A DNA stretch of 64,000 nucleotides from Nanobdellota archaeon. Its GTDB lineage: Archaea; Aenigmatarchaeota; Aenigmatarchaeia; QMZP01. Positions within the stretch are counted from its first letter, which is position 1. Each line of letters starts with the position of its first letter. The notes beneath the pieces are model-generated. The model did not search any database and was not told the DNA's origin. It saw only the letters and a program-made list of their open reading frames with translations. The position numbers and the translations under genes were made by a program. This document shows positions 20,991 to 34,605 of this stretch, in pieces. The stretch covers positions 124,001 to 188,000 of the forward strand of contig JAHIVW010000003.1 in NCBI GenBank assembly GCA_018816245.1, read 5' to 3'.

Positions 20991-21254
20991 ATGCTAATGA
21001 AAAAGAGTACCTTCCTTCTTGTTATTGTCATTCTTTCTGGGATCGTGATCCTCCTTTACGGGAGTTCTCTCGCTTCCGCCGACACGTCCGTTGAAGCTGA
21101 TCTCTATGCCTATCTCTCTCACCAGCTTTCGGCTGACGAATTGACCGCCTTTGAACAGGCTCGACAGCAAGATCCTGTTGAGACGATTTTTGCAAAGCTA
21201 CGAGAAATGAGTCCACCCAAACTCGAAACAACGGTCAAGGCAGGACAGCAATGA
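20991..21254 (+). CDS. Hypothetical small exported protein
   Basis: Signal/TM N-terminus; overlaps the next ORF start (ATGA). Confidence 0.55.
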   Translation: MLMKKSTFLLVIVILSGIVILLYGSSLASADTSVEADLYAYLSHQLSADELTAFEQARQQDPVETIFAKLREMSPPKLETTVKAGQQ

Positions 21255-23470
21255 AATACGTCTTTCTTGTACTTTCCGTAATCCTTGGCCTTGTTAGTAT
21301 TACGACGTTTGCTGGAGCAGCGATTCTTGTTACGCCGGCGACACCATCTCCTTTTCCAAATTATCCTCCGACAACTCCAACAACATTCTTGTGTAACGGT
21401 GTTCCGTGCCAAGACGCAACATATCATAAGCCGCTTCTCCTTCAATGTGCTGGATCAGTTGATGATGAACAAGATCCTATCTCTTATGAGATAGAAGGCT
21501 TTTTCTTCCCTTACAAAGACTGGTGGGATCAGAATTTTCAATATCGAAAATCGGTTTGGGCTTATAATCCATCTAATTCTGTTTTGAATGTTACTGTAGA
21601 AATTAACATGAATGATACTGATTTCACAGAACATGCGAAATCTGATAAAGGTGATATTAGAATAGTTGATAATGAAAATCAAAATGAACTCCCTTATGAT
21701 CTGATTGAAGGAAATAACCGTGTAAGGATTCAAATCATAATACTGCCTCAACAAAATAGAGAATTCTATATCTATTATGGTAATCCTAATGCTCTAACAA
21801 CTGAACAAATATTGGAAGATCATGGAGGTCTTAAGGTTGTTTACACTTTTGTAGGCGGTGCTGCGAGTTCCTGTCGGAATGGTGGACAAAACTGTTGGGA
21901 TGATGCGAAAACACATAGTTGGCCGACCCTTATCGGTTCAGGTGGAGCCTTTGGTGACTTTGAAAAATCAGGAACAGACCCGAGACCATTAGACACACGT
22001 GGCGGAGGATTATATTGGACTATTAACGATGGAGATGCAGCTTCATGGATGAGACTCGACTTACCTGAAATTCTCAGAATTGATGGGGTTTCTCAATCAA
22101 TTTATAATGATTCGAGAACAAACAACTATAGCATTTCTGTTGCAAATGAAACAACTGGTCCTTGGACTGTTGTTGTCCCCTCAGATCAATATACCAAAAT
22201 CACGACATTCGATATCGATGATATCGACGCAAAATATGTCTTGCTTAATACAACCGCCGCCAGTGTTGGGGATCCGATGTCAGAAGAACTTGAAGTCTGG
22301 AAAGATATAAAACCAGAACTCGTTTTGGGTAATGAAAAAGCTTTGTTTGATTGGAATATCCTTGGTTATCATCCTGAAGAATCAACAATCCTGTGGGATT
22401 TCTCGAATATCCCTCCACAAACAGGTATCAATCTTCGCTGTCGAGCAAGTGATCCAATAGGAAGTAATACATTTTCTGATTATTTCGATGCAAATATCGA
22501 TATAACAACTGAAGAAGATTATTCCCCTATTCTAGAAGAAATAGGTGCTCTCAGAGTCTATGAGAACCAAACGTTAAGTCTAAAGGTAAATGCAACGGAT
22601 TACCACAATGATCCACTTACCTATATCTTAGATGCTCCCACGATAAAGAGTCCTTTCTATTTTGATGAAACAACAGGACAACTTGAATGGACTCCTACCT
22701 TTATTGATGAAGGATTCTATCCTGTGAATTTCTCCGTGTCTGACGGTGCTCCTGAGAATCTCGTCTGGGAATCCACAAACATAACAGTCCTTCATATAAA
22801 TGCTCCACCATTCATTGACCCTATTGGCGACAAGACCATTCTTGAAGGGCAGCCACTAACATTCCAACTATCGGTTAATGAAGTTGACAATGACTCATTT
22901 GTTCTTGATAGTGATGTCGAAATGGTCATTCCTTCTGCGACTTTTGATGAAAATTCTGGAATCTTTTCTTGGACACCAAACTTTGTAGACTATGGTGATT
23001 ATAACGTTACTTTTAGTGCAACTGATGGCCAAGCAACATCCTCCGAAACAATCACAATCTCCGTAGCCGACGCAAAAACAGCAAATCTCTATGCTGTTGG
23101 TGCACCCAAACTCGGAAATACGATTTCACTCTTGGCGTCTGATCCCGCAGCGGCAAATCAGTTTTACTTTGTCCTGTTGGCGCTCGGAACAGATCCAGGC
23201 ATTCCTCTTGGTGATGGAAGAAACATCCCGCTTCAGCCAGATGCCCTCTTCCATATTTCTCTTAATTATCCAAATTTCATTGGTCTCAGCGACTCAGTTG
23301 GGTTGCTCAATGAAGCTGGAAACGCTGTGGTAACGTGGACAATTCCTGAAATTTCTGCTTTAGAAAACAAAGATGTCTATATCGTCCTGGGAACAGCTGA
23401 CCTCAGTCTTCAGCCGCCAAAGGCTCTTATTTCAATAACAGATCCCATTCATTTGACACTTCTCCCTTGA
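21251..23470 (+). CDS. Large surface protein: DUF2341 domain plus cadherin-like/Ig-like domains
   Basis: WWDQNFQYRKSVWAYNPSNSVLNVTVEINMN...REFYIYYGNP (DUF2341-like); repeated ETTGQLEWTPTFIDEGFYPVNFSVSDG / ENSGIFSWTPNFVDYGDYNVTFSATDG putative-Ig units. Confidence 0.8.
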   Translation: MKYVFLVLSVILGLVSITTFAGAAILVTPATPSPFPNYPPTTPTTFLCNGVPCQDATYHKPLLLQCAGSVDDEQDPISYEIEGFFFPYKDWWDQNFQYRKSVWAYNPSNSVLNVTVEINMNDTDFTEHAKSDKGDIRIVDNENQNELPYDLIEGNNRVRIQIIILPQQNREFYIYYGNPNALTTEQILEDHGGLKVVYTFVGGAASSCRNGGQNCWDDAKTHSWPTLIGSGGAFGDFEKSGTDPRPLDTRGGGLYWTINDGDAASWMRLDLPEILRIDGVSQSIYNDSRTNNYSISVANETTGPWTVVVPSDQYTKITTFDIDDIDAKYVLLNTTAASVGDPMSEELEVWKDIKPELVLGNEKALFDWNILGYHPEESTILWDFSNIPPQTGINLRCRASDPIGSNTFSDYFDANIDITTEEDYSPILEEIGALRVYENQTLSLKVNATDYHNDPLTYILDAPTIKSPFYFDETTGQLEWTPTFIDEGFYPVNFSVSDGAPENLVWESTNITVLHINAPPFIDPIGDKTILEGQPLTFQLSVNEVDNDSFVLDSDVEMVIPSATFDENSGIFSWTPNFVDYGDYNVTFSATDGQATSSETITISVADAKTANLYAVGAPKLGNTISLLASDPAAANQFYFVLLALGTDPGIPLGDGRNIPLQPDALFHISLNYPNFIGLSDSVGLLNEAGNAVVTWTIPEISALENKDVYIVLGTADLSLQPPKALISITDPIHLTLLP

Positions 23471-25510: not shown

Positions 25511-25834
25511 TTATCGGATTCGTGTGACCCGATCAACGCGCATCTTCCGGACACGTGGTTTCCAAACAGTTTTTGGCAACCATTCAGGACGATCTTCAGT
25601 ATCCATGCGAAGTTTCACACGGGAACCCTTGAAGATATGGATGCTGTAGGTGCCATCTCGGTTTCGTCGGCCGCGCTCACGAAGAGTAATATCTTTGAAG
25701 CCGCGTGTTGCTGCTTTCAGTGCGGCTTGTCGTGGTTGTCGACCAGTGAAAATGGCACTTGTCCTACCTTGTCGCAGAATGTAGTATTTCCTTGCGCTGG
25801 TACGGGTACGTCGTTTTTTCACTCTTTTCGCCAT
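25511..25834 (-). CDS. Non-histone chromosomal protein MC1
   Basis: YYILRQGRTSAIFTGRQPRQAALKAATRG...ITLRERG...YSIHIFKGSRVKL...RPEWLPKTVWKPRVRKMRVDRV closely matches the MC1 pattern. Confidence 0.85.
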   Translation of the reverse strand: MAKRVKKRRTRTSARKYYILRQGRTSAIFTGRQPRQAALKAATRGFKDITLRERGRRNRDGTYSIHIFKGSRVKLRMDTEDRPEWLPKTVWKPRVRKMRVDRVTRIR

Positions 25835-25912: not shown

Positions 25913-27406
25913 CTACATCTGATAGAGTCCCTTTCTGATCTTCTGGAGGATCTCTTGTTCATCCCGATAGTATTCTGAAATAATCTTCCCGGTTTTGTTC
26001 ACGTCCCGGACCTGTTGTTTCACCAGCCACTTGAGAATTTCCGCCTTTTCTGCAAGATTCTTGTTGATATCATCATCCTCCATCCCGGAAAACAGCTTGA
26101 TATCATCCATGGTTCGCTGGGATTTTTCAAGGGTTACAATTTGATCCTTTGCAGGGAGCCACCGATAGAGGGTTGACAGATCGATCTTAATGTTGTCACC
26201 ACCGCCGGTAATAAGCTCTGCGATCTGCAGGACGCGCCGGATCTCCCGGCGACGATCCCGGTGCATAATGACCATAAGCTGTAGGCTCGAGAGCAAGGAC
26301 ATGGGGATCGAGATTGGAGGATTTGTCATCCGGCGGAACGCCTCTTCCGCGGTATTGGCATGCAGGGTCGCGTACACAGAGTGTCCGGTATGGATGGCCT
26401 CAAACAATACTTCAGCTTCCTTTGATCGTCGAATCTCTCCGACAATAACACGATCCGGTCGCATTCGCAATGCATTGATCATGAGTTGCAACATCCCAAC
26501 CTCGCCCTGCCCTTCTGCATTGGGCGGTCGGGTTGTCAGGGGAACCCAATGCAGATAGATAGGAAGCTGAATCTCTCGGGTATCTTCAATGGAAATAATC
26601 CGATGATTCGGGGGAATGAAGCTTGCCAGTACGGTCAAGAGGCTCGTCTTTCCACTTGCGGTGCCTCCTGCAATCAAGATATTTAGTTCATATTGAATAG
26701 CCAACCAGAGAAAAGCAGCGGCTTCAACGCCGATTGTTCCGTCTTCGATAAAATCAGCGATGGTCCATGGCCGTCTGGCGAATTTTCGGATCGTCAAGGT
26801 ATTCCCGGAAGAAATCGGGAAGAGGGTCGCATTTGCACGATCTCCTGTTGTCAAGTAAGCGTCCATCAGTGGGTGTAAGTGGGTAATCTGTGTCCCAACG
26901 CGCCGTCCAATCATCGCAGCATAGTTATAGATCTCAATTTCTTTCGAAATAGTAATGTCTGTTTTCAACCAACCATATTTTCGATGATAGACCCAGATCG
27001 GTTCCTTCGAACTGTTGATGACCACCTCTTCCAAGTTATCATCAACAAGGAGCATTTCAATTACCCCAAGACCAAGTGATCGGTGGGCAAGGAGTCCTGC
27101 AAGAACCTTTCGTTCCTTTTCTGGGTGCGTCGGGAGTTCTGTTTTGAGTATGGTGATTGTCCGCTCGATAAACTTTTGTTTTACCCGTGCTGATTCTTCA
27201 GGGTCAAGAACTTCAAGCGGCCTGAGCGACAGTTCTGCCAACATTCGTTCTCGAATAGAATCAAGGACAGCCCACGTTCCGCCTTCAATATCGGGGGTCA
27301 CTAGTTTGTATCGAGGAACAAAATCCTCGCGGTCTTTGATAATGACAATCTTCCCCGGAACACCATCTGCCTCAAGTTGATAGTGATCAATTTCTTGTGA
27401 TTCCAT
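25913..27406 (-). CDS. Type IV pilus/archaellum-type secretion ATPase (VirB11/GspE family)
   Basis: LIAGGTASGKTSLLTVLASF Walker A; ISIEDTREIQLP; GEIRRSKEAEVLFEAIHTGHSVYATLHANTAEEAFRRM. Confidence 0.92.
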   Translation of the reverse strand: MESQEIDHYQLEADGVPGKIVIIKDREDFVPRYKLVTPDIEGGTWAVLDSIRERMLAELSLRPLEVLDPEESARVKQKFIERTITILKTELPTHPEKERKVLAGLLAHRSLGLGVIEMLLVDDNLEEVVINSSKEPIWVYHRKYGWLKTDITISKEIEIYNYAAMIGRRVGTQITHLHPLMDAYLTTGDRANATLFPISSGNTLTIRKFARRPWTIADFIEDGTIGVEAAAFLWLAIQYELNILIAGGTASGKTSLLTVLASFIPPNHRIISIEDTREIQLPIYLHWVPLTTRPPNAEGQGEVGMLQLMINALRMRPDRVIVGEIRRSKEAEVLFEAIHTGHSVYATLHANTAEEAFRRMTNPPISIPMSLLSSLQLMVIMHRDRRREIRRVLQIAELITGGGDNIKIDLSTLYRWLPAKDQIVTLEKSQRTMDDIKLFSGMEDDDINKNLAEKAEILKWLVKQQVRDVNKTGKIISEYYRDEQEILQKIRKGLYQM

Positions 27407-27437
27407 ACCCCATCTTCCATTGGAACCATGCCTTTTA

Positions 27438-27998
27438 TTACTTCAGCAGACCCATCCGCTGCTTCCAATGCCAGTAGCGGATCTTGTTCCGTAATACAAA
27501 AAGGAGAATTGCGAGCACAAAGAGACCAACAGGGATGACCAAAAAGATGGGCTGGTCACGAGGAAGTGGAGGAAGTTCAATCCTCCCGCTCCGCCGAATG
27601 ATCGCGACGATGATAACGACGATTGCGAGTACAAGAAGCACAAGAAATCGGGTCATCTTTCGGTTCTGTTTCATTCGCTTGGGGAGGATTTCTTTCTTTT
27701 TCCGAGCGGCTGGTTCTGGTTGTCCTGGTGGAAGGAGAACAGGCTTGCCAAATGCTGGATAGTGAAGTTTTAGGAGCTGGTGATCCTCGAGGATATTCCC
27801 CCAATTTTCGATGGTTCTGACTTCAACACCGAGCAGGGAAGCAGCTTCCAAAACCGTCATTCCCTTCCGAGCAGCAACCTCTCGGATGAGCCGGTCAACT
27901 TTTGTCTCAATATGTTGTTTCACTTCCCCAGGGGTTGCTGCCTGTACTACCTTGACGGCTTCTTTGACTGCCTGAGGAATTGGTTTTTTCTCTGCCAC
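27438..27998 (-). CDS. HTH-domain protein with C-terminal TM segments (GTG start proposed)
   Basis: KVDRLIREVAARKGMTVLEAASLLGVEVRTIENWGNIL (HTH-like), then two hydrophobic segments. Confidence 0.6.
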   Translation of the reverse strand: MAEKKPIPQAVKEAVKVVQAATPGEVKQHIETKVDRLIREVAARKGMTVLEAASLLGVEVRTIENWGNILEDHQLLKLHYPAFGKPVLLPPGQPEPAARKKKEILPKRMKQNRKMTRFLVLLVLAIVVIIVAIIRRSGRIELPPLPRDQPIFLVIPVGLFVLAILLFVLRNKIRYWHWKQRMGLLK

Positions 27999-28039
27999 AC
28001 GCCCACCATATGTTATTCGGTTCAGAGGTTCATAAACTT

Positions 28040-28681
28040 CTATGTGCTCCCACAGACACCGTCGATGCAGGTGAGATAGCCAGCGAGCAACTGTTTGCAC
28101 GCCTCAGGAGAGAATTCCCCTGATTGAATGATTTCACCCCCTTCCTTGACCGTGCAGAAATTGAGCATGCTATTATGTGATGCCGTGAAAGAGGTTCCGA
28201 TCCCCATAAAGTTCTGCCAGACAAATTCCTGGTTTTCCGTGCCAGTAACAAACGTCCCTTCTGATGTTCTGATACACTCCAGAACTGAGGTGCAAGTTCG
28301 ACAGACACCAGTTGGGTCACATACGGGAAGCGGATTCTCACAGTCATAATTAACAAACGTTGTTGATCCGTTGGCGATGGTTTCAGTATATTGGGGAGTG
28401 CAGGAGAGGGGTTCATCTTCTGTTTCATTCGTTTCGGTCATGGCTTGATCGTTTCCTGTTTCACTGTTTTCCGCGCCTGTTGCTGTTGCGGTATTATCTT
28501 GATCCTGTCCAGCTTCATTCTGACCTTCAGTGCCGGTTTCGTTTTGCGTCCCGGGTTCACCTGAAAGAGACGTCGGTGAACCGAGATTCGGATGTTCTTG
28601 AACAGCAGTTTCCAAGAAGAATGAGAGAAAGATCCCAATAATAATCGCGGCAAGGATGAGGAGCGGAATTTTACCTCGCAT
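28040..28681 (-). CDS. Hypothetical exported, Thr/Glu/Asn-rich linker plus Cys-rich domain protein
   Basis: MRGKIPLLILAAIIIGIFLSFFLETAV anchor; CENPLPVCDPTGVCRTCTSVLECI; start near 28681 proposed. Confidence 0.6.
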   Translation of the reverse strand: MRGKIPLLILAAIIIGIFLSFFLETAVQEHPNLGSPTSLSGEPGTQNETGTEGQNEAGQDQDNTATATGAENSETGNDQAMTETNETEDEPLSCTPQYTETIANGSTTFVNYDCENPLPVCDPTGVCRTCTSVLECIRTSEGTFVTGTENQEFVWQNFMGIGTSFTASHNSMLNFCTVKEGGEIIQSGEFSPEACKQLLAGYLTCIDGVCGST

Positions 28682-28715
28682 ATCTTTTCTCTTTGTTTTC
28701 GGACTACAAGTACTT

Positions 28716-29945
28716 TTATCCAAACAAATCAACGGTTTCCTCTTCTACGGCCTGCGCATTCTCAAGGAGATCGCTGAAATTATAATACTCTGCGAACCGT
28801 GTATTGATTTTCACCCAATCCGGGAGATGCCTGACATGATATCCCTTGGCCTCTTGCGACTGGAAATAGTAAAAATCAACAATTGACTGATTTTCCTTGA
28901 CCGGGAGGCCGGCATCCTCTAATTCCGGAATATATACAAACGAATCGAGTGCATCGAGCATGCTGTAATTATTCCCTGTGAAATTCCCTTGAAGCCGCTC
29001 ATAAACCGAGGCGCCAACACCAACCTGGTACCGTTTGGTGAGAACCGTATCATTCAGAGGGATATGCCAAACACCATTGGTGAAGTTATCCAGCGTGATA
29101 AAGGGATACGGCTCATCGTTCAGAGTTTGGGTTATGGCAGCGATCGCACCGGCTGCACCAACAACAAAACACGAGACGCTCGGTGTCCCGGCCCCTTCAC
29201 CAATTATCCCTGTAAAGCCGGTGATTCCCGTTGGATCTGTTGTGACGAGAATCTTTCCTTCTCCTGTGTCACCCTCATCGAATGTGACGAGACCGCTACA
29301 GTTGCCACTGCTCGCTGATCCGGTCAGGAGCTTTTTTGCATAGTAGCTATACAGGCTCAGGTTATAGGTCCGCTTGATGATGCCTGAGGTTTTCGCGATA
29401 TACAGCGGATCATCAAAACCTTCCACAGTGAAGAAAAGAGGCGTTTTGGTGCGTTTCTCAAATATTGCCCTCCCAAAAGGATCTGAAATATTAACGAGGA
29501 TATCATAGGTTCCAGAGATAGTCATTCCGCTAATGTTATCCAATTGCGGTGTCAAAAAGGAAATTGACGTTTCAAATCCCGTTGTAATATTCTGTATCTT
29601 CATCTTCCAATCAGTAAGGGTATTATTTTGCATAAGGGTATTGGGAACACCATAAAGTGTTCCATTCAAAATTAATTCAACTCCTCGATACCCGGTATTA
29701 TCCATGAATTCACCATTTGTCACCACATGATCTGTGATTGCAATGAAAGCCCGTTTTGCTGACGTAGTTACCCCTTTTTGAAAATCTGCCTCGATTGTTT
29801 TTTCGACAATGCGCATCTGATCAATGACCACCATTTCTGCAACCGCTGAATGCTGTTCTTGGAAGGTAGTGAGGGAGAATGCAAAAAGGGAAAACAGAGG
29901 AATTGCGATCACCAACGCCATGAGCGAGTAGGCTTGTCCCTTCAT
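28716..29945 (-). CDS. Pilin-like/pseudopilin-like surface protein
   Basis: N-terminus MKGQAYSLMALVIAIPLFSLFAFSLTTFQEQ, long extracellular C-terminal part. Confidence 0.6.
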   Translation of the reverse strand: MKGQAYSLMALVIAIPLFSLFAFSLTTFQEQHSAVAEMVVIDQMRIVEKTIEADFQKGVTTSAKRAFIAITDHVVTNGEFMDNTGYRGVELILNGTLYGVPNTLMQNNTLTDWKMKIQNITTGFETSISFLTPQLDNISGMTISGTYDILVNISDPFGRAIFEKRTKTPLFFTVEGFDDPLYIAKTSGIIKRTYNLSLYSYYAKKLLTGSASSGNCSGLVTFDEGDTGEGKILVTTDPTGITGFTGIIGEGAGTPSVSCFVVGAAGAIAAITQTLNDEPYPFITLDNFTNGVWHIPLNDTVLTKRYQVGVGASVYERLQGNFTGNNYSMLDALDSFVYIPELEDAGLPVKENQSIVDFYYFQSQEAKGYHVRHLPDWVKINTRFAEYYNFSDLLENAQAVEEETVDLFG

Positions 29946-31822
29946 ATCCAAATCCGTATATCTAATTGTGCTGGACCCCAGAGTGAAGGCACATCGCCAA
30001 TACTTTGCGATTCATTTGAGATGTCAATTGCTTGGATAAAGGGGCCGAGCAGTTCTTCGAGTCGTTCGTACGCATCAGCAACAGCATCACTCTCATTCGC
30101 AAAGACAGTACCATACCCAACCGTGCTTCTGATTAATGTTGTGACACTTGCCAGTGCATTGGCAGGATCAATCCCATATCCCTGCGTGAAGTTGAGGGAG
30201 AACAGGTTATTTGCACCGGCAACAAGGGCATTCGCAGACGACACCGGAGTGTACCCGAAGCGAGCAAACTCCACAATCAAAGGATTAGAACTTGGGTTGT
30301 TTGGGTCATGATTGTATAAGACATCTCCATTTACAAATACCTGTTGAACAGGATTCGCTCCTGAGTAGTACAACCATGGAAGTTTGTAGAGTGCTGCAAG
30401 CGGTTCTGATTCGTTATGGATTGAGACATTCCACGTGACATTTCGATAGAACTCGGGAACTGCTTCATCTTGTTCGTACAGTGAGAATAGACTCGCCTGG
30501 GTTGTAAGATCAACTTTTCCAAAGACAATAGTATAAGGGTCATACCCAACCTCAACATACGATGTATCACGCCGAATGACTCGCTGATAATAATCCCTTC
30601 TCGTTCGCGTAACGTATTTATCAATATCAACAACAACCCAGAACACCCCCGTTGAAAATTCGGTAACAGAAATCCCAGAAGCCGCAAGTGTTGTTGCAAT
30701 CTCTGTTTCGTTCCAGAACACAGAGCCATTGGTAACATTTTTTATACTAATGTAATAAGATACCCCTTTCCAAGTGATATTCAAGGTCGCATTCTGGATT
30801 GGTGTTCCGCCGCTCTCATTTGTAAAGTTCAAGGAGACGTTAAGCCCGCTCACATTACCAAGGACAAAGATGGGCTTTTTATACCGAATTGGTGCTTCAG
30901 AAAGAACCTCATAGAAATGGAAACGAGCGGGGTTTGAGATTGTCGCCAAGGTAGTGGTATTGTATTGAACAACGAAATGGGTTGCTCCGTCATCGCCTCC
31001 TTCTGCTCCACCACTTCCGTATCGGCTGACAACACTCACTGTATTATTTCCAGGGACAATGTAGTCGGTAATGTCGGTTAATCCCTTTCCTGAAGACTGA
31101 TAGACAAAATTACCATTCACATACACCTTAAAAGGATTATCAATCCATGCTGTCTCAATGAATGTGCTTGCATTCGAAATATTTGCATTCAACGGGACTT
31201 CAAGTAAATAAGTGATATTAACCTGATTGCCGTTATTCCCCATGGGAAATTGTTTCACGGAACTGGTAATGACATCCCCCAACATAATCAGAGTATTGTT
31301 TTTTGTCGCGGTAATGAGCCACGCACGGGAAATATATCCATAGGATGGTTTGCCGATTTCGAACCCGCTTGCAATAGCGCGCTGTCTGATAACGAATCGA
31401 GCTGTTTCAGTGATATTCCGTTCAAAGAGCTGCGTTCCATCCATGAGAATCTGTGCATTGTATGGGGTACCGTTGAAAAATGGCGACAAAACACTCCCGG
31501 TGATGTTTTCAGCATAGGTTGTATTTCCTTCGGCCCAAAATGCTCCGATGACATCTAAGAGATCGCGCCCGCGATCCGATTGGGTAAGAATCCCGGCGGC
31601 GAAAAGATCAGCAAGAACCGGATAATTATCCTCAAGGTCTCCCACGGTTGCTGTCTGGGTCAGCAAGAGTGTATCTCTGCTCACCATGGAAAGGCGCTGC
31701 ACCGTGAGCTCAGGGGCTGACGTTGAGAAGGAAAGGGCACTCAGCATGATCGCAAGCGTTAGCAGCAACCCCACTGAAACCATGGCGTCGATTGATAGTA
31801 GAAACCCTCGTTGTGTTCGCAC
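29942..31822 (-). CDS. Large pilin-like surface protein (GTG start proposed; ORF open to 31903)
   Basis: N-terminus VRTQRGFLLSIDAMVSVGLLLTLAIMLSALSF then large Asn/Thr-rich ectodomain. Confidence 0.6.
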   Translation of the reverse strand: MRTQRGFLLSIDAMVSVGLLLTLAIMLSALSFSTSAPELTVQRLSMVSRDTLLLTQTATVGDLEDNYPVLADLFAAGILTQSDRGRDLLDVIGAFWAEGNTTYAENITGSVLSPFFNGTPYNAQILMDGTQLFERNITETARFVIRQRAIASGFEIGKPSYGYISRAWLITATKNNTLIMLGDVITSSVKQFPMGNNGNQVNITYLLEVPLNANISNASTFIETAWIDNPFKVYVNGNFVYQSSGKGLTDITDYIVPGNNTVSVVSRYGSGGAEGGDDGATHFVVQYNTTTLATISNPARFHFYEVLSEAPIRYKKPIFVLGNVSGLNVSLNFTNESGGTPIQNATLNITWKGVSYYISIKNVTNGSVFWNETEIATTLAASGISVTEFSTGVFWVVVDIDKYVTRTRRDYYQRVIRRDTSYVEVGYDPYTIVFGKVDLTTQASLFSLYEQDEAVPEFYRNVTWNVSIHNESEPLAALYKLPWLYYSGANPVQQVFVNGDVLYNHDPNNPSSNPLIVEFARFGYTPVSSANALVAGANNLFSLNFTQGYGIDPANALASVTTLIRSTVGYGTVFANESDAVADAYERLEELLGPFIQAIDISNESQSIGDVPSLWGPAQLDIRIWI

Positions 31823-31884
31823 CAGACACCCCTCACCTTGAATTGGAGTTGAGTTATTATATAGCTCCAAACCGAAAAAGAGGT

Positions 31885-32271
31885 ATGCGGCACGGCCAGG
31901 CAACTGTTGAATTCCTGATGATCTTCATGCTTTTCCTCGCGGCCCTAAACGTAGTTGCGGTTGTTGCCTACCAACGCTATACCGAGATCCAAACAATTCG
32001 CCAGGATATTGAGGCCAATACGCTTGTGGTATCGCTAGCGAATACCCTCAATTCCGCTTTTCTCGCAGGTGACGGGTTCAGAATTAACATGAGTCTTCCC
32101 AACTCCGTTGGAAACACCAACTATACGATTCACGTCTTGGGAAATCTTCTCATGTTGAATACGAGTCGCGATACCTATAGCGAAACGCTTTTTACACCAA
32201 ATATAACCGGAACTTTTGTTCCTGGTTTAAATACAATCCGTAATATTAACAATAACGTGGTGGTGCAATAG
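31885..32271 (+). CDS. Type IV pilin-like protein (class III-like signal)
   Basis: MRHGQATVEFLMIFMLFLAALNVVAVVAYQRYTEIQ; G-Q-A-T-V-E N-terminal motif. Confidence 0.65.
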   Translation: MRHGQATVEFLMIFMLFLAALNVVAVVAYQRYTEIQTIRQDIEANTLVVSLANTLNSAFLAGDGFRINMSLPNSVGNTNYTIHVLGNLLMLNTSRDTYSETLFTPNITGTFVPGLNTIRNINNNVVVQ

Positions 32272-32272
32272 A

Positions 32273-32773
32273 ATGCGAGGACAAATTTGGTCATTAGACG
32301 CGATCGCGTCTATTCTGATTTTTGTTTCAGCGTTTCTGCTTCTCGCTTTTGCATGGAACAATGCCCAGGTTCAGTTGATGGAACGGCAAACACAACTCCA
32401 TCTTGAATCACGAGTAATTGGAATTTCAGACAGTCTCCTTCGTACCCCGGGCCTTCCCCTCGATTGGAATGCAGGAAATGTCCAGTCAATCGGCATCATC
32501 AAAGAAGAAAACGTTATCAACCAGACCCTTTTGATCCGGTTTCTCGATCTTCCAGAGACAATAGCAAAAGCGACGTTTGGGATTTCTGATGCTGCGTACT
32601 TTTTCCAACTGTTTGATATCAATGGGAGCATTCGTTATGTCAATGATCAACTCGCTGTTAGCGGAACGGCTCCTCATCAAAACGCCACACTTATTGTTCC
32701 TGTTGTCCGGTTTGTGCTCCTTGACGGCGACCCAGTCAAACTCTTCCTTACCTTGTGGGTGCCACGTGATTAG
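32273..32773 (+). CDS. Pilin-like protein
   Basis: MRGQIWSLDAIASILIFVSAFLLLAFAWNNAQVQ; directly follows the upstream pilin-like gene. Confidence 0.62.
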   Translation: MRGQIWSLDAIASILIFVSAFLLLAFAWNNAQVQLMERQTQLHLESRVIGISDSLLRTPGLPLDWNAGNVQSIGIIKEENVINQTLLIRFLDLPETIAKATFGISDAAYFFQLFDINGSIRYVNDQLAVSGTAPHQNATLIVPVVRFVLLDGDPVKLFLTLWVPRD

Positions 32774-33039
32774 AGATCGAATTCAAAAAACTTGTACTTG
32801 ATCGTGAGCCGGTACCCTTTTTTCTTCATGCTTCTGAGAAAGTCGTCAGAGGATCCCGATCCCTTTCCTTTCCCCATTAAATACTTGACCACAGCCTCGG
32901 TGCTCAGAAGAATACTCTTGATCTCGATAATAATATGCTTCCCCTGGACAATGACTTCAGCTGCAGGATGCTCTCCAATGGTGACATAGAAATGGAGCTG
33001 CCCCGACAGTTGATCGAGAAACTCACCAAGCTGCCCCAT
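32770..33039 (-). CDS. Hypothetical protein
   Basis: 89 aa ORF, regular beta-like pattern, adjacent co-oriented small ORF. Confidence 0.55.
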   Translation of the reverse strand: MGQLGEFLDQLSGQLHFYVTIGEHPAAEVIVQGKHIIIEIKSILLSTEAVVKYLMGKGKGSGSSDDFLRSMKKKGYRLTIKYKFFEFDL

Positions 33040-33056: not shown

Positions 33057-33272
33057 TTACCGCTTGGCAAGTGGGACAAGGGTGAACTCAATCTTCCCTT
33101 CGAGCGTGACCTTGGACTTCCCGATATTGAAGGCAACGCCGTTCAAATCGATTTTCGCCTTGGTTTCTTTGCCCTGAAGGAGTTCAAGAACCTGAAGGAT
33201 CATCCCTTCCTTGTTTTTCAAGAGTTCTTGGATGATGCTCGTTCCGGTGCCAGTGGATGTGTTTTTCGCCAT
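33057..33272 (-). CDS. Hypothetical protein
   Basis: 71 aa ORF, helical N-terminus then KAKIDLNGVAFNIGKSKVTLEGKIEFTLVPL. Confidence 0.55.
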   Translation of the reverse strand: MAKNTSTGTGTSIIQELLKNKEGMILQVLELLQGKETKAKIDLNGVAFNIGKSKVTLEGKIEFTLVPLAKR

Positions 33273-33312: not shown

Positions 33313-34605
33313 ATGGAGCGAATTATTGTTGGACGGAACGTCGCAGATCTTGCCTCATTCGGCGACAAGGGAACCGGGTTTCTGGGGAAGCATGTTGTTG
33401 GTTCTGGGGAGCAGATGCACCTCACGAACCCGATTTATATGGATCTTGCACGGCCGCATATCGTCCTTGTATGCGGCAAACGCGGCACAGGAAAGAGCTA
33501 TGACGGCGGTGTTGTCGCCGAAGAAGTGTCCCTGTTGTCGCCGGAGATCCGGAAGAACCTCTCGGTGCTTATCTTCGATACCATGGGTATCTACTGGTCC
33601 ATGAAGATGGCCAATGACCGGGACCAGGATCTGCTCAATGAATGGGGGCTCAAGCCACATGCCATGAAGACAAAGCTCGTTGTCCCAAAGGCATTTGTTG
33701 AATCGTACAAGGAGGTGGGTGTTGCCGTGGATGCGCCGCTAGTGCTTCCCTGCGGGGAACTCTCGGCAACGGATTGGATTATCGCCTTCGGCTTCTCGCC
33801 AATCGACGAACACGGGATCGGCATTGAACGCGCCATCAAGGCTGTCAGCAAGCGGTACGGCACCGTGTACAGCATCGATGACATCACCAAAGCCATCGGG
33901 GAGAACAAGCGGTTGCAGCAGCACGTCCGGGAATCCCTCTTGAACCGGTTTGAAGCAGCAAAGGAGTGGGGGCTCTTCGAGAAACGGGGAACGCCGCTTC
34001 AAGAGCTGTTTGCTCCCGGGGTGATCACGATCGTTGACGTGTCCCACTATGCTGGGGCCAATGCCGGCTGGTCTGTCCGCGGCATGCTGGTGGGGCTGCT
34101 GAGCAGGCAGATCTATCAGGAACGCCTCGTGTCACGAAAGGCAGAGGAGTTCGAGGTCATCTCCGGCGAGCGCCGGAAGACCATTCCTATGGTCTGGATC
34201 ATGATCGACGAGGCCCACATGTTCCTGCCGAACGACGGGGAGACCGCGGCAAGCTCGGCGTTGCAGACTCTCGTCAAGCAAGGCCGTGAACCCGGGATCT
34301 CCTTGCTGTTCATTACTCAGCGACCTAACAAGCTGCATGAGGACGCCCTGGCGCAGGCGGATCTGGTGATCAGCCACCGGCTGACCGCGAAGGCGGACAT
34401 CGAGGCGCTGCGGAGCGTCATGCAGACCTACATGCTCGAGGACCTGCAGGACGCGCTCAACGGCCTGCCGGACATCAAGGGCGCGGCCCTGATCCTTGAC
34501 GACAATTCGGAACGCATTCTGAGTGCAGTGATCCGGCCGCGGTTCTCGTGGCACGCGGGCGGGTCGCCGATGGCAGTCAAGAAGAAGAGTTTGTTTGAGG
34601 AGTGA
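33313..34605 (+). CDS. HerA/DUF87-like ATPase
   Basis: VCGKRGTGKSYDGGVVAEEV Walker A; PMVWIMIDEAHMFLP Walker B; SLLFITQRPNKLHEDALAQADLVISHRLTAKADIEAL. Confidence 0.87.
   Translation: MERIIVGRNVADLASFGDKGTGFLGKHVVGSGEQMHLTNPIYMDLARPHIVLVCGKRGTGKSYDGGVVAEEVSLLSPEIRKNLSVLIFDTMGIYWSMKMANDRDQDLLNEWGLKPHAMKTKLVVPKAFVESYKEVGVAVDAPLVLPCGELSATDWIIAFGFSPIDEHGIGIERAIKAVSKRYGTVYSIDDITKAIGENKRLQQHVRESLLNRFEAAKEWGLFEKRGTPLQELFAPGVITIVDVSHYAGANAGWSVRGMLVGLLSRQIYQERLVSRKAEEFEVISGERRKTIPMVWIMIDEAHMFLPNDGETAASSALQTLVKQGREPGISLLFITQRPNKLHEDALAQADLVISHRLTAKADIEALRSVMQTYMLEDLQDALNGLPDIKGAALILDDNSERILSAVIRPRFSWHAGGSPMAVKKKSLFEE

What the first reader, a model, noticed from the sequence alone, without database searches (positions are those of the whole stretch)
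25913..32773. Pilin-like locus with an unusual N-terminal G-[QF]-x-x-S-[LI]-[DM]-A motif
A secretion ATPase, an HTH-TM protein, a Cys-rich exported protein and four N-terminally anchored proteins cluster together. The four N-termini read KGQAYSLMALVIAIPLF, RGFLLSIDAMVSVGLLL, RHGQATVEFLMIFMLFL and RGQIWSLDAIASILIFV. One (GQATVEF) fits the known class III (EppA-type) prepilin pattern (Q-x-[ST]-x-E). The other three share a register-shifted S-[LI]-[DM]-A variant, and two have very large ectodomains (about 410 and 630 aa). No platform protein (TadC/FlaJ-like) or prepilin peptidase is visible nearby. This could be an undescribed type IV pilus-like surface machine in which large adhesins enter the same filament.
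Basis: partly seen in the sequence, partly recalled or inferred. Interest (0 to 1): 0.62.

Follow-up and report, generated by a model that had tools for sequence, protein, structure and literature searches.

The report
DPANN type IV pilus with grafted pilins
This is one half of a complete type IV pilus machine of a tiny symbiont-like archaeon (Aenigmatarchaeota), whose other half lies 65 kb away, and one of its minor filament subunits carries a large, exchangeable sugar- or protein-binding-like outer part, probably used to hold on to surfaces or partner cells.

Summary
The pattern G[QF]xxS[LI][DM]A occurs three times in the 1012 open frames of the genome, all in this locus (0.09 expected). It is a type IV pilus system, but neither incomplete nor of an unknown kind. 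The 'missing' parts exist in the genome: an orthologous TadC pair followed by two class III prepilins (QSAMEYLMTYGW, QVAVEYLI) at contig positions 221490-224413, 65 kb away, plus one A24 prepilin peptidase with an intact GxGD motif. In relatives the two halves form one locus: 128-aa pilin, 166-aa pilin, large pilin, 409-aa protein, HTH, ATPase, TadC, TadC, class III pilin. It recurs across DPANN bins. The S-[LI]-[DM]-A signal is real and conserved: K/R-G/A leader end, S/T at +4, Asp/Glu at +6, where canonical class III has Glu at +5. Haloarchaeal minor pilins (DUF7288: RAQAHTLEG) share that register. The 626-aa protein is a modular pilin: orthologues in the same slot are 143-148-aa plain pilins, 600-aa forms with beta-sandwich ectodomains, or 830-1515-aa forms with a vWA domain. 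The 409-aa protein lacks the acidic residue and may be a tip or initiation subunit. A new variant of a known kind.

The parts
25913..27406 (-). Type IV pilus assembly ATPase (T2SSE/VirB11 family), 497 aa
   Evidence: Pfam T2SSE E 1.4e-34; closest solved relative is the type II secretion system protein 2oap, E 1.7e-93 over the full length; 57-67% identical orthologues in most family and order relatives
27438..28100 (-). HTH + two-TM protein (likely start near 27998), conserved between the 409-aa protein and the ATPase; possibly regulatory
   Evidence: 30-42% identical homologues in the same slot in G001, G003, G006, G008, G022, G023; no Pfam family over its cut-off
28040..28681 (-). Cys-rich exported protein, about 213 aa; weakly conserved accessory
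   Evidence: 25-33% identical homologues in the same slot in G001, G006, G020, G023; absent from many loci
28716..29945 (-). 409-aa prepilin-like protein 'mid' (MKG|QAYSLMAL), no acidic residue at +5/+6; candidate tip/initiation subunit
   Evidence: Family in 63 of 156 genomes of the phylum; N-terminal logo; AF2 model pLDDT 90 with one helix 2-77; no close solved fold
29942..31822 (-). 626-aa modular minor pilin 'big' (RG|FLLSIDA, Asp at +6) with a large beta-sandwich ectodomain
   Evidence: N-terminal about 170-260 aa and C-terminal about 60 aa conserved, middle variable; vWA insert in relatives, E 6e-13; plain 143-148-aa forms in the same slot; AF2 pLDDT 82
31823..31884 (.). 62-bp divergent intergenic region between the two pilin transcription units; by inference holds both promoters
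   Evidence: Gene starts; same divergent arrangement in G003 and G022
31885..32271 (+). 128-aa canonical class III minor prepilin (HG|QATVEF, Glu at +5)
   Evidence: Class_IIIsignal, TadE and DUF7266 weak Pfam matches; Q+1 and E+5 in 26 of 26 family members whose N-terminus matched the search pattern, which itself requires both
32273..32773 (+). 166-aa minor prepilin (RG|QIWSLDA, Asp at +6), homologous to the pilin module of the 626-aa protein and to haloarchaeal DUF7287
   Evidence: 4 of 6 members match DUF7287, best E 3e-7, although the window member itself does not; hhalign to the short forms and N-termini of 'big', E 1e-8

Best explanation
The locus is the ATPase-plus-minor-pilin half of a complete DPANN type IV pilus system. 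Shown by sequence: in relatives it is one locus with a TadC pair and a class III pilin, and in this genome the second half, gene for gene and in the same order, sits 65 kb away. Inferred mechanism: the A24 peptidase cuts after the Gly/Ala that ends the short basic leader. The ATPase and the TadC1/TadC2 platform then push out a filament of the class III pilin QSAMEYLMTYGW (candidate major pilin). The 128-aa, 166-aa, 626-aa and 409-aa prepilins form a minor-pilin complex, most likely at the tip, that starts the filament. The 626-aa protein is the 145-aa-type minor pilin with a large exchangeable module grafted on (beta-sandwich, carbohydrate-binding-like here; vWA in relatives), so it would present a binding domain on the filament. 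The S-[LI]-[DM]-A signal is a prepilin signal whose acidic residue sits at +6 instead of +5 and is absent in the 409-aa protein.
For: Conserved locus order across DPANN bins. Of 26 loci with at least 6.5 kb on both sides of the ATPase, 22 have TadC1, 20 TadC2, and 10 have all four pilin families. ATPase orthologue and 409-aa family co-occur in 36 of 43 genomes, against 3 of 18 without the orthologue, p 1e-6. Own TadC pair 46-57% identical to the pair next to the ATPase in close relatives, then the class III pilin (up to 51%) and the QVAVEY pilin (up to 45%) in the same order. One A24 peptidase with GDGD. K/R-G/A cleavage context and +6 acid in the families. 166-aa family homologous to the pilin module of 'big'. 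Plain, beta-sandwich and vWA forms in one syntenic slot. Haloarchaeal operon with ATPase, T2SSF, DUF7287, DUF7288, DUF7261, DUF7266, DUF7289 and N-terminus RAQAHTLEG.
Against: Cleavage, polymerisation and tip position are untested. The motif logo was taken only from members found with a pattern that already requires most of the motif. 5 of 26 well-covered loci carry none of the four families and six carry one, so the pilin set diverges or is exchanged. TadC is not beside the ATPase in several close relatives. The haloarchaeal link is moderate for the 166-aa family and weak for the other two. The 65-kb split could in principle be an assembly fault in this MAG. Foldseek matches of the 626-aa model are at domain level only, with low TM-scores.
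Confidence: 0.85

Rival explanations
1. The 626-aa and 409-aa proteins are not filament subunits but membrane-anchored surface or stator proteins (S-layer linkers, TadG-like anchors) that work beside the pilus and keep their N-terminal helix uncleaved.
For: Very large ectodomains; acidic residue out of canonical register or missing; [quoted passage not shown]
Against: K/R-G/A leader end conserved as in true prepilins; homology of the pilin module of 'big' to the 166-aa minor pilin and to plain 145-aa forms in the same slot; very large modular pilins are experimentally known in bacteria (PMC8179133).
Confidence: 0.2
2. The locus is a secretion (type II-like) pseudopilus that pushes substrates out rather than a surface pilus.
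For: The closest solved ATPase relative is annotated as a type II secretion protein (2oap); the 409-aa protein, large and without the acidic residue, recalls GspK (own knowledge).
Against: No linked exported substrate recurs in the loci apart from the weakly conserved Cys-rich protein; the archaeal ATPases of this family that have been studied assemble pili and archaella (PMC4858521); a class III pilin is linked.
Confidence: 0.07
3. The N-termini are ordinary signal anchors and the resemblance to prepilins is chance.
For: Pfam finds almost nothing in the window proteins on their own.
Against: Motif restricted to this locus in the genome, conserved over DPANN families with G/A-1, S/T+4, D/E+6, conserved linkage to ATPase and TadC.
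Confidence: 0.03

Closest known systems
Euryarchaeal/haloarchaeal T4P operons (PilB type; ATPase, T2SSF, DUF7287, DUF7288, DUF7261, DUF7266, DUF7289)
   Same: ATPase and platform followed by a set of small prepilin-like proteins; 166-aa family matches DUF7287 (E 3e-7, relatives), plain form of 'big' matches DUF7288 (7e-5), 128-aa family matches DUF7266 (3e-4); DUF7288 shows the same acid +6 N-terminus
   Different: Two separate TadC genes instead of one long T2SSF; class III pilin instead of Pilin_N type; large grafted ectodomain; no clear counterpart of the 409-aa protein; profile comparison weak for two of three families
Methanogen/Thermococcus clade 1 T4P (EppA system)
   Same: Two TadC, class III QxxxE prepilins, DUF2341 protein not far away (21251-23470)
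   Different: No tree placed the ATPase in clade 1; the only A24 peptidase (278 aa) is not next to the system; the DUF2341 gene is separated by a Rad50-like and an MC1 gene
Bacterial modular pilins (Streptococcus sanguinis PilB with vWA, PilC with lectin; GspK)
   Same: Pilin module with grafted vWA or carbohydrate-binding module, thought to sit at the tip (PMC8179133)
   Different: Archaeal, different signal (Asp +6), conserved C-terminal about 60 aa closes the protein, so the module looks inserted rather than appended; no N_methyl motif match
Archaellum (FlaI/FlaJ)
   Same: Homologous ATPase and platform
   Different: ATPase scores 263 bits against a cut-off of 550 for FlaI; no archaellins seen in the conserved locus

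Membership tests
Archaeal type IV pilus system | VirB11-type assembly ATPase | tested here: met
   T2SSE E 1.4e-34; 2oap E 1.7e-93
Archaeal type IV pilus system | TadC/FlaJ platform protein | tested here: met
   Orthologous pair at C4:221490-223353, not in the window but contiguous with the ATPase in relatives
Archaeal type IV pilus system | A24 prepilin peptidase in the genome | tested here: met
   C4:66241-67077, 278 aa, GDGD motif
Archaeal type IV pilus system | Class III prepilins | tested here: met
   QATVEF in the window, QSAMEY and QVAVEY beside the TadC pair
Archaeal type IV pilus system | Filament on the cell surface made of these proteins | not testable with these tools
   Needs microscopy and mass spectrometry
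Euryarchaeal clade 2 / haloarchaeal PilB-type T4P | ATPase within the clade | tested here: inconclusive
   Closest solved relative is 2oap; no tree with reference ATPases was made
Euryarchaeal clade 2 / haloarchaeal PilB-type T4P | Shared minor pilin families | tested here: inconclusive
   DUF7287 E 3e-7 and hhalign 1.9e-4; DUF7288 7e-5 but hhalign 0.047; DUF7266 3e-4 but hhalign 0.009
Euryarchaeal clade 2 / haloarchaeal PilB-type T4P | PilA-type (Pilin_N) major pilin | tested here: not met
   Linked candidate QSAMEY matches Pilin_N only at E 0.34
Clade 1 (EppA) T4P | EppA-type 9-TM peptidase in the locus | tested here: inconclusive
   Only A24 peptidase is 83 kb away; about 7 hydrophobic segments by a crude count
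Modular pilins | Pilin module plus a separate functional module | tested here: met
   Module homologous to plain minor pilins with vWA in relatives, E 6e-13, beta-sandwiches here
Modular pilins | Glu at +5 and IPR012902 motif | tested here: not met
   Asp at +6; no N_methyl match
Archaellum | FlaI at equivalog score | tested here: not met
   263 bits against cut-off 550

The most novel reading that the evidence does not exclude
A second prepilin signal class exists in archaea, with the acidic residue at +6, carried by a dedicated tip complex of a DPANN pilus whose modular subunit swaps its binding head (plain, sugar-binding-like, vWA) between lineages, so that host attachment in these symbiotic archaea is diversified by pilin grafting.
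Probability: 0.35. Interest if true: 0.6.

Novelty: new variant of a known kind. Interest (0 to 1): 0.42.

Why it matters
How DPANN archaea hold their hosts is largely unknown, and the pilins of one nanoarchaeal pilus ATPase group could not be identified in the 2016 census (PMC4858521). This gives a concrete pilin set, an explanation of where the missing platform is, an N-terminal signature usable for finding more, and an archaeal counterpart of bacterial modular pilins whose heads are exchanged between lineages.

Tried and rejected
Search for the haloarchaeal link on plasmids with the 166-aa relative: no match; the ATPase search led to the haloarchaeal operons instead. Profile comparison of the 409-aa family with DUF7261, suggested by gene order: no support. 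PDB sequence search for the 626-aa family: nothing meaningful, Nup84 at E 0.11. Fold search of the 409-aa model: no match below E 0.001, weak CaMKII-hub-like matches only. Considered and rejected: chance anchors, archaellum, a machine without platform. Literature: no paper in the library names DUF7287, DUF7288 or DUF7266, and among the titles and abstracts listed by the searches none is about this DPANN pilin set; subscription journals are mostly not covered.

Full report
WHAT IS THERE. The window is G000:C4:124001-188000 of an 886-kb archaeal MAG. Its nearest relatives in GTDB are named Candidatus Aenigmatarchaeota, a DPANN lineage; the window's own taxonomy is inferred from them. The seven genes exist as described. 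With likely starts (the Cys-rich and HTH starts read) they are: ATPase 25913-27406(-), HTH-TM protein 27438-28100(-), Cys-rich exported protein 28040-28681(-), 409-aa protein 28716-29945(-), 626-aa protein 29942-31822(-), and, divergent, a 128-aa protein 31885-32271(+) and a 166-aa protein 32273-32773(+).

THE MOTIF. G[QF]xxS[LI][DM]A occurs three times among 1012 predicted frames, all here, with 0.09 expected. In relatives the N-termini keep the same layout: a short leader ending K/R then G or A; S or T at +4; Asp or Glu at +6 in the 626-aa and 166-aa families; no acidic residue in the 409-aa family; Glu at +5 in the 128-aa family. The counts come from sequences found with a pattern that requires most of these positions. 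However, the full-length 626-aa-family members that missed the pattern still read KGFTFSLE, KGIIFTFD, RKGFYFSFD and KKGFYFSFD. If cleavage were one residue later the acid would be at +5, but the -1 residue would then be F, I, V or Q, while the Gly before it is nearly invariant, so cleavage after Gly is the better reading (inference).

THE MISSING HALF. The genome has seven T2SSF matches and one A24 peptidase. The TadC pair at C4:221490-223353 is 46-57% identical to the pair directly behind the ATPase in close relatives G003, G004 and G022. In this genome it is followed by MQTRKGQSAMEYLMTYGW (157 aa) and, on the other strand, MRGQVAVEYLI (157 aa), with orthologues in the same places in relatives. 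So the locus was split between ATPase and TadC1 with both halves kept in order. The peptidase (C4:66241-67077, 278 aa) has the GDGD motif.

CONSERVATION. In 80 named loci and 20 loci from relatives (partly the same genomes) the order 128-aa, 166-aa, big, mid, ATPase, TadC1, TadC2, class III pilin recurs, in some with the pilin block inverted or downstream. Bins are named Aenigmatarchaeota, Nanohaloarchaeota, Micrarchaeota, Parvarchaeota, Diapherotrites and Woesearchaeota. Of 26 loci covered by at least 6.5 kb on both sides, 10 have all four pilin families, 5 none. The 409-aa family is in 63 of 156 genomes of the phylum and goes with the ATPase orthologue: 36 of 43 genomes with it, 3 of 18 without (counts read by eye; test; the genomes are related, so p is a guide).

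MODULAR PILIN. Homologues of the 626-aa protein keep the first 170-260 and last 60 residues while the middle varies. Three of ten carry a vWA domain, E 6e-13. In the same slot other genomes have proteins of only 143-148 aa that share the N-terminal 60-85 residues (E 7e-8 to 3e-10) and end similarly. The profile of these short forms and N-termini is homologous to the 166-aa family (E 1e-8). The AF2 model (12 sequences, pLDDT 82) has helices 11-33 and 37-57 followed by many beta strands. Fold search hits sugar-binding and cellulose-synthase-B type proteins with good E-values but low overall TM-scores, so only 'beta-sandwich, carbohydrate-binding-like' is claimed, with the weak GH2 sugar-binding match (E 0.008). 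The 409-aa model is good (pLDDT 90), with one 76-residue helix and a domain without close solved relatives.

RELATION TO KNOWN SYSTEMS. The ATPase is closest among solved structures to 2oap. Haloarchaeal plasmid operons carry ATPase, T2SSF, DUF7287, DUF7288, DUF7261, DUF7266 and DUF7289 in a row. Their DUF7288 N-termini, RAQAHTLEG and RAQTFTLES, have the same +6 acid. Sequence links to the DPANN families are moderate (DUF7287) or weak (DUF7288, DUF7266). The PilB1-C1 operon of Haloferax volcanii is needed for full adhesion (PMC6491452); that it is of the same type as the operons seen here was not checked. Modular pilins with vWA or lectin heads are known in bacteria (PMC8179133).

VERDICT. Observation confirmed; machine real, complete and of a known kind; the +6 signal and the exchangeable pilin head are the parts worth following.

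Noticed in passing
G000:C4:211680-217583 (outside the window): Six minus-strand genes (973, 374, 147, 150, 137, 219 aa) upstream of the TadC pair (a few other genes lie between) begin with short leaders and hydrophobic anchors (RKGISFTIIEVMGVFAFV, MKGMAIHILSITLSF); no strong Pfam match. Possibly a second set of pilin-like surface proteins.
   Followed up: partly
window 33313-34605, with 32770-33039 and 33057-33272: HerA/DUF87-like ATPase and small proteins next to the pilin genes; the ATPase is conserved near the locus in G003, G007, G020 and G022 (about 60% identity). Link to the pilus unknown.
   Followed up: partly
window 21251-23470: 739-aa exported protein with Ig-like (He_PIG) and weak DUF2341 and discoidin-like matches; DUF2341 proteins are proposed tip adhesins of clade 1 archaeal pili.
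   Followed up: no
G000:C3:20441-20950: Stand-alone 169-aa prepilin-like protein MRTG|QLVFEFLVAAVL, weakly related to the 166-aa family (E 6.5e-5).
   Followed up: no
G000:C4:44908-45291 and C4:547761-549359; L126, L128, L135 behind the ATPase: Another N-terminal type, (K/R)G-[FI]-x-[HR]-[VIL]-x-E-[AI], again with the acidic residue at +6, on proteins of 127-756 aa, in relatives directly or closely behind the pilus ATPase.
   Followed up: no
window 25511-25834: Chromatin protein MC1 (E 3e-19) next to the ATPase.
   Followed up: no
G000:C4:517382-542457 and C3:67002-72303: Two further sets of T4P genes in the genome: one with ATPase and TadC genes scattered over 25 kb and class II prepilins (RKGISPIIAAILL) beside one TadC, one with ATPase and TadC pair together.
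   Followed up: partly
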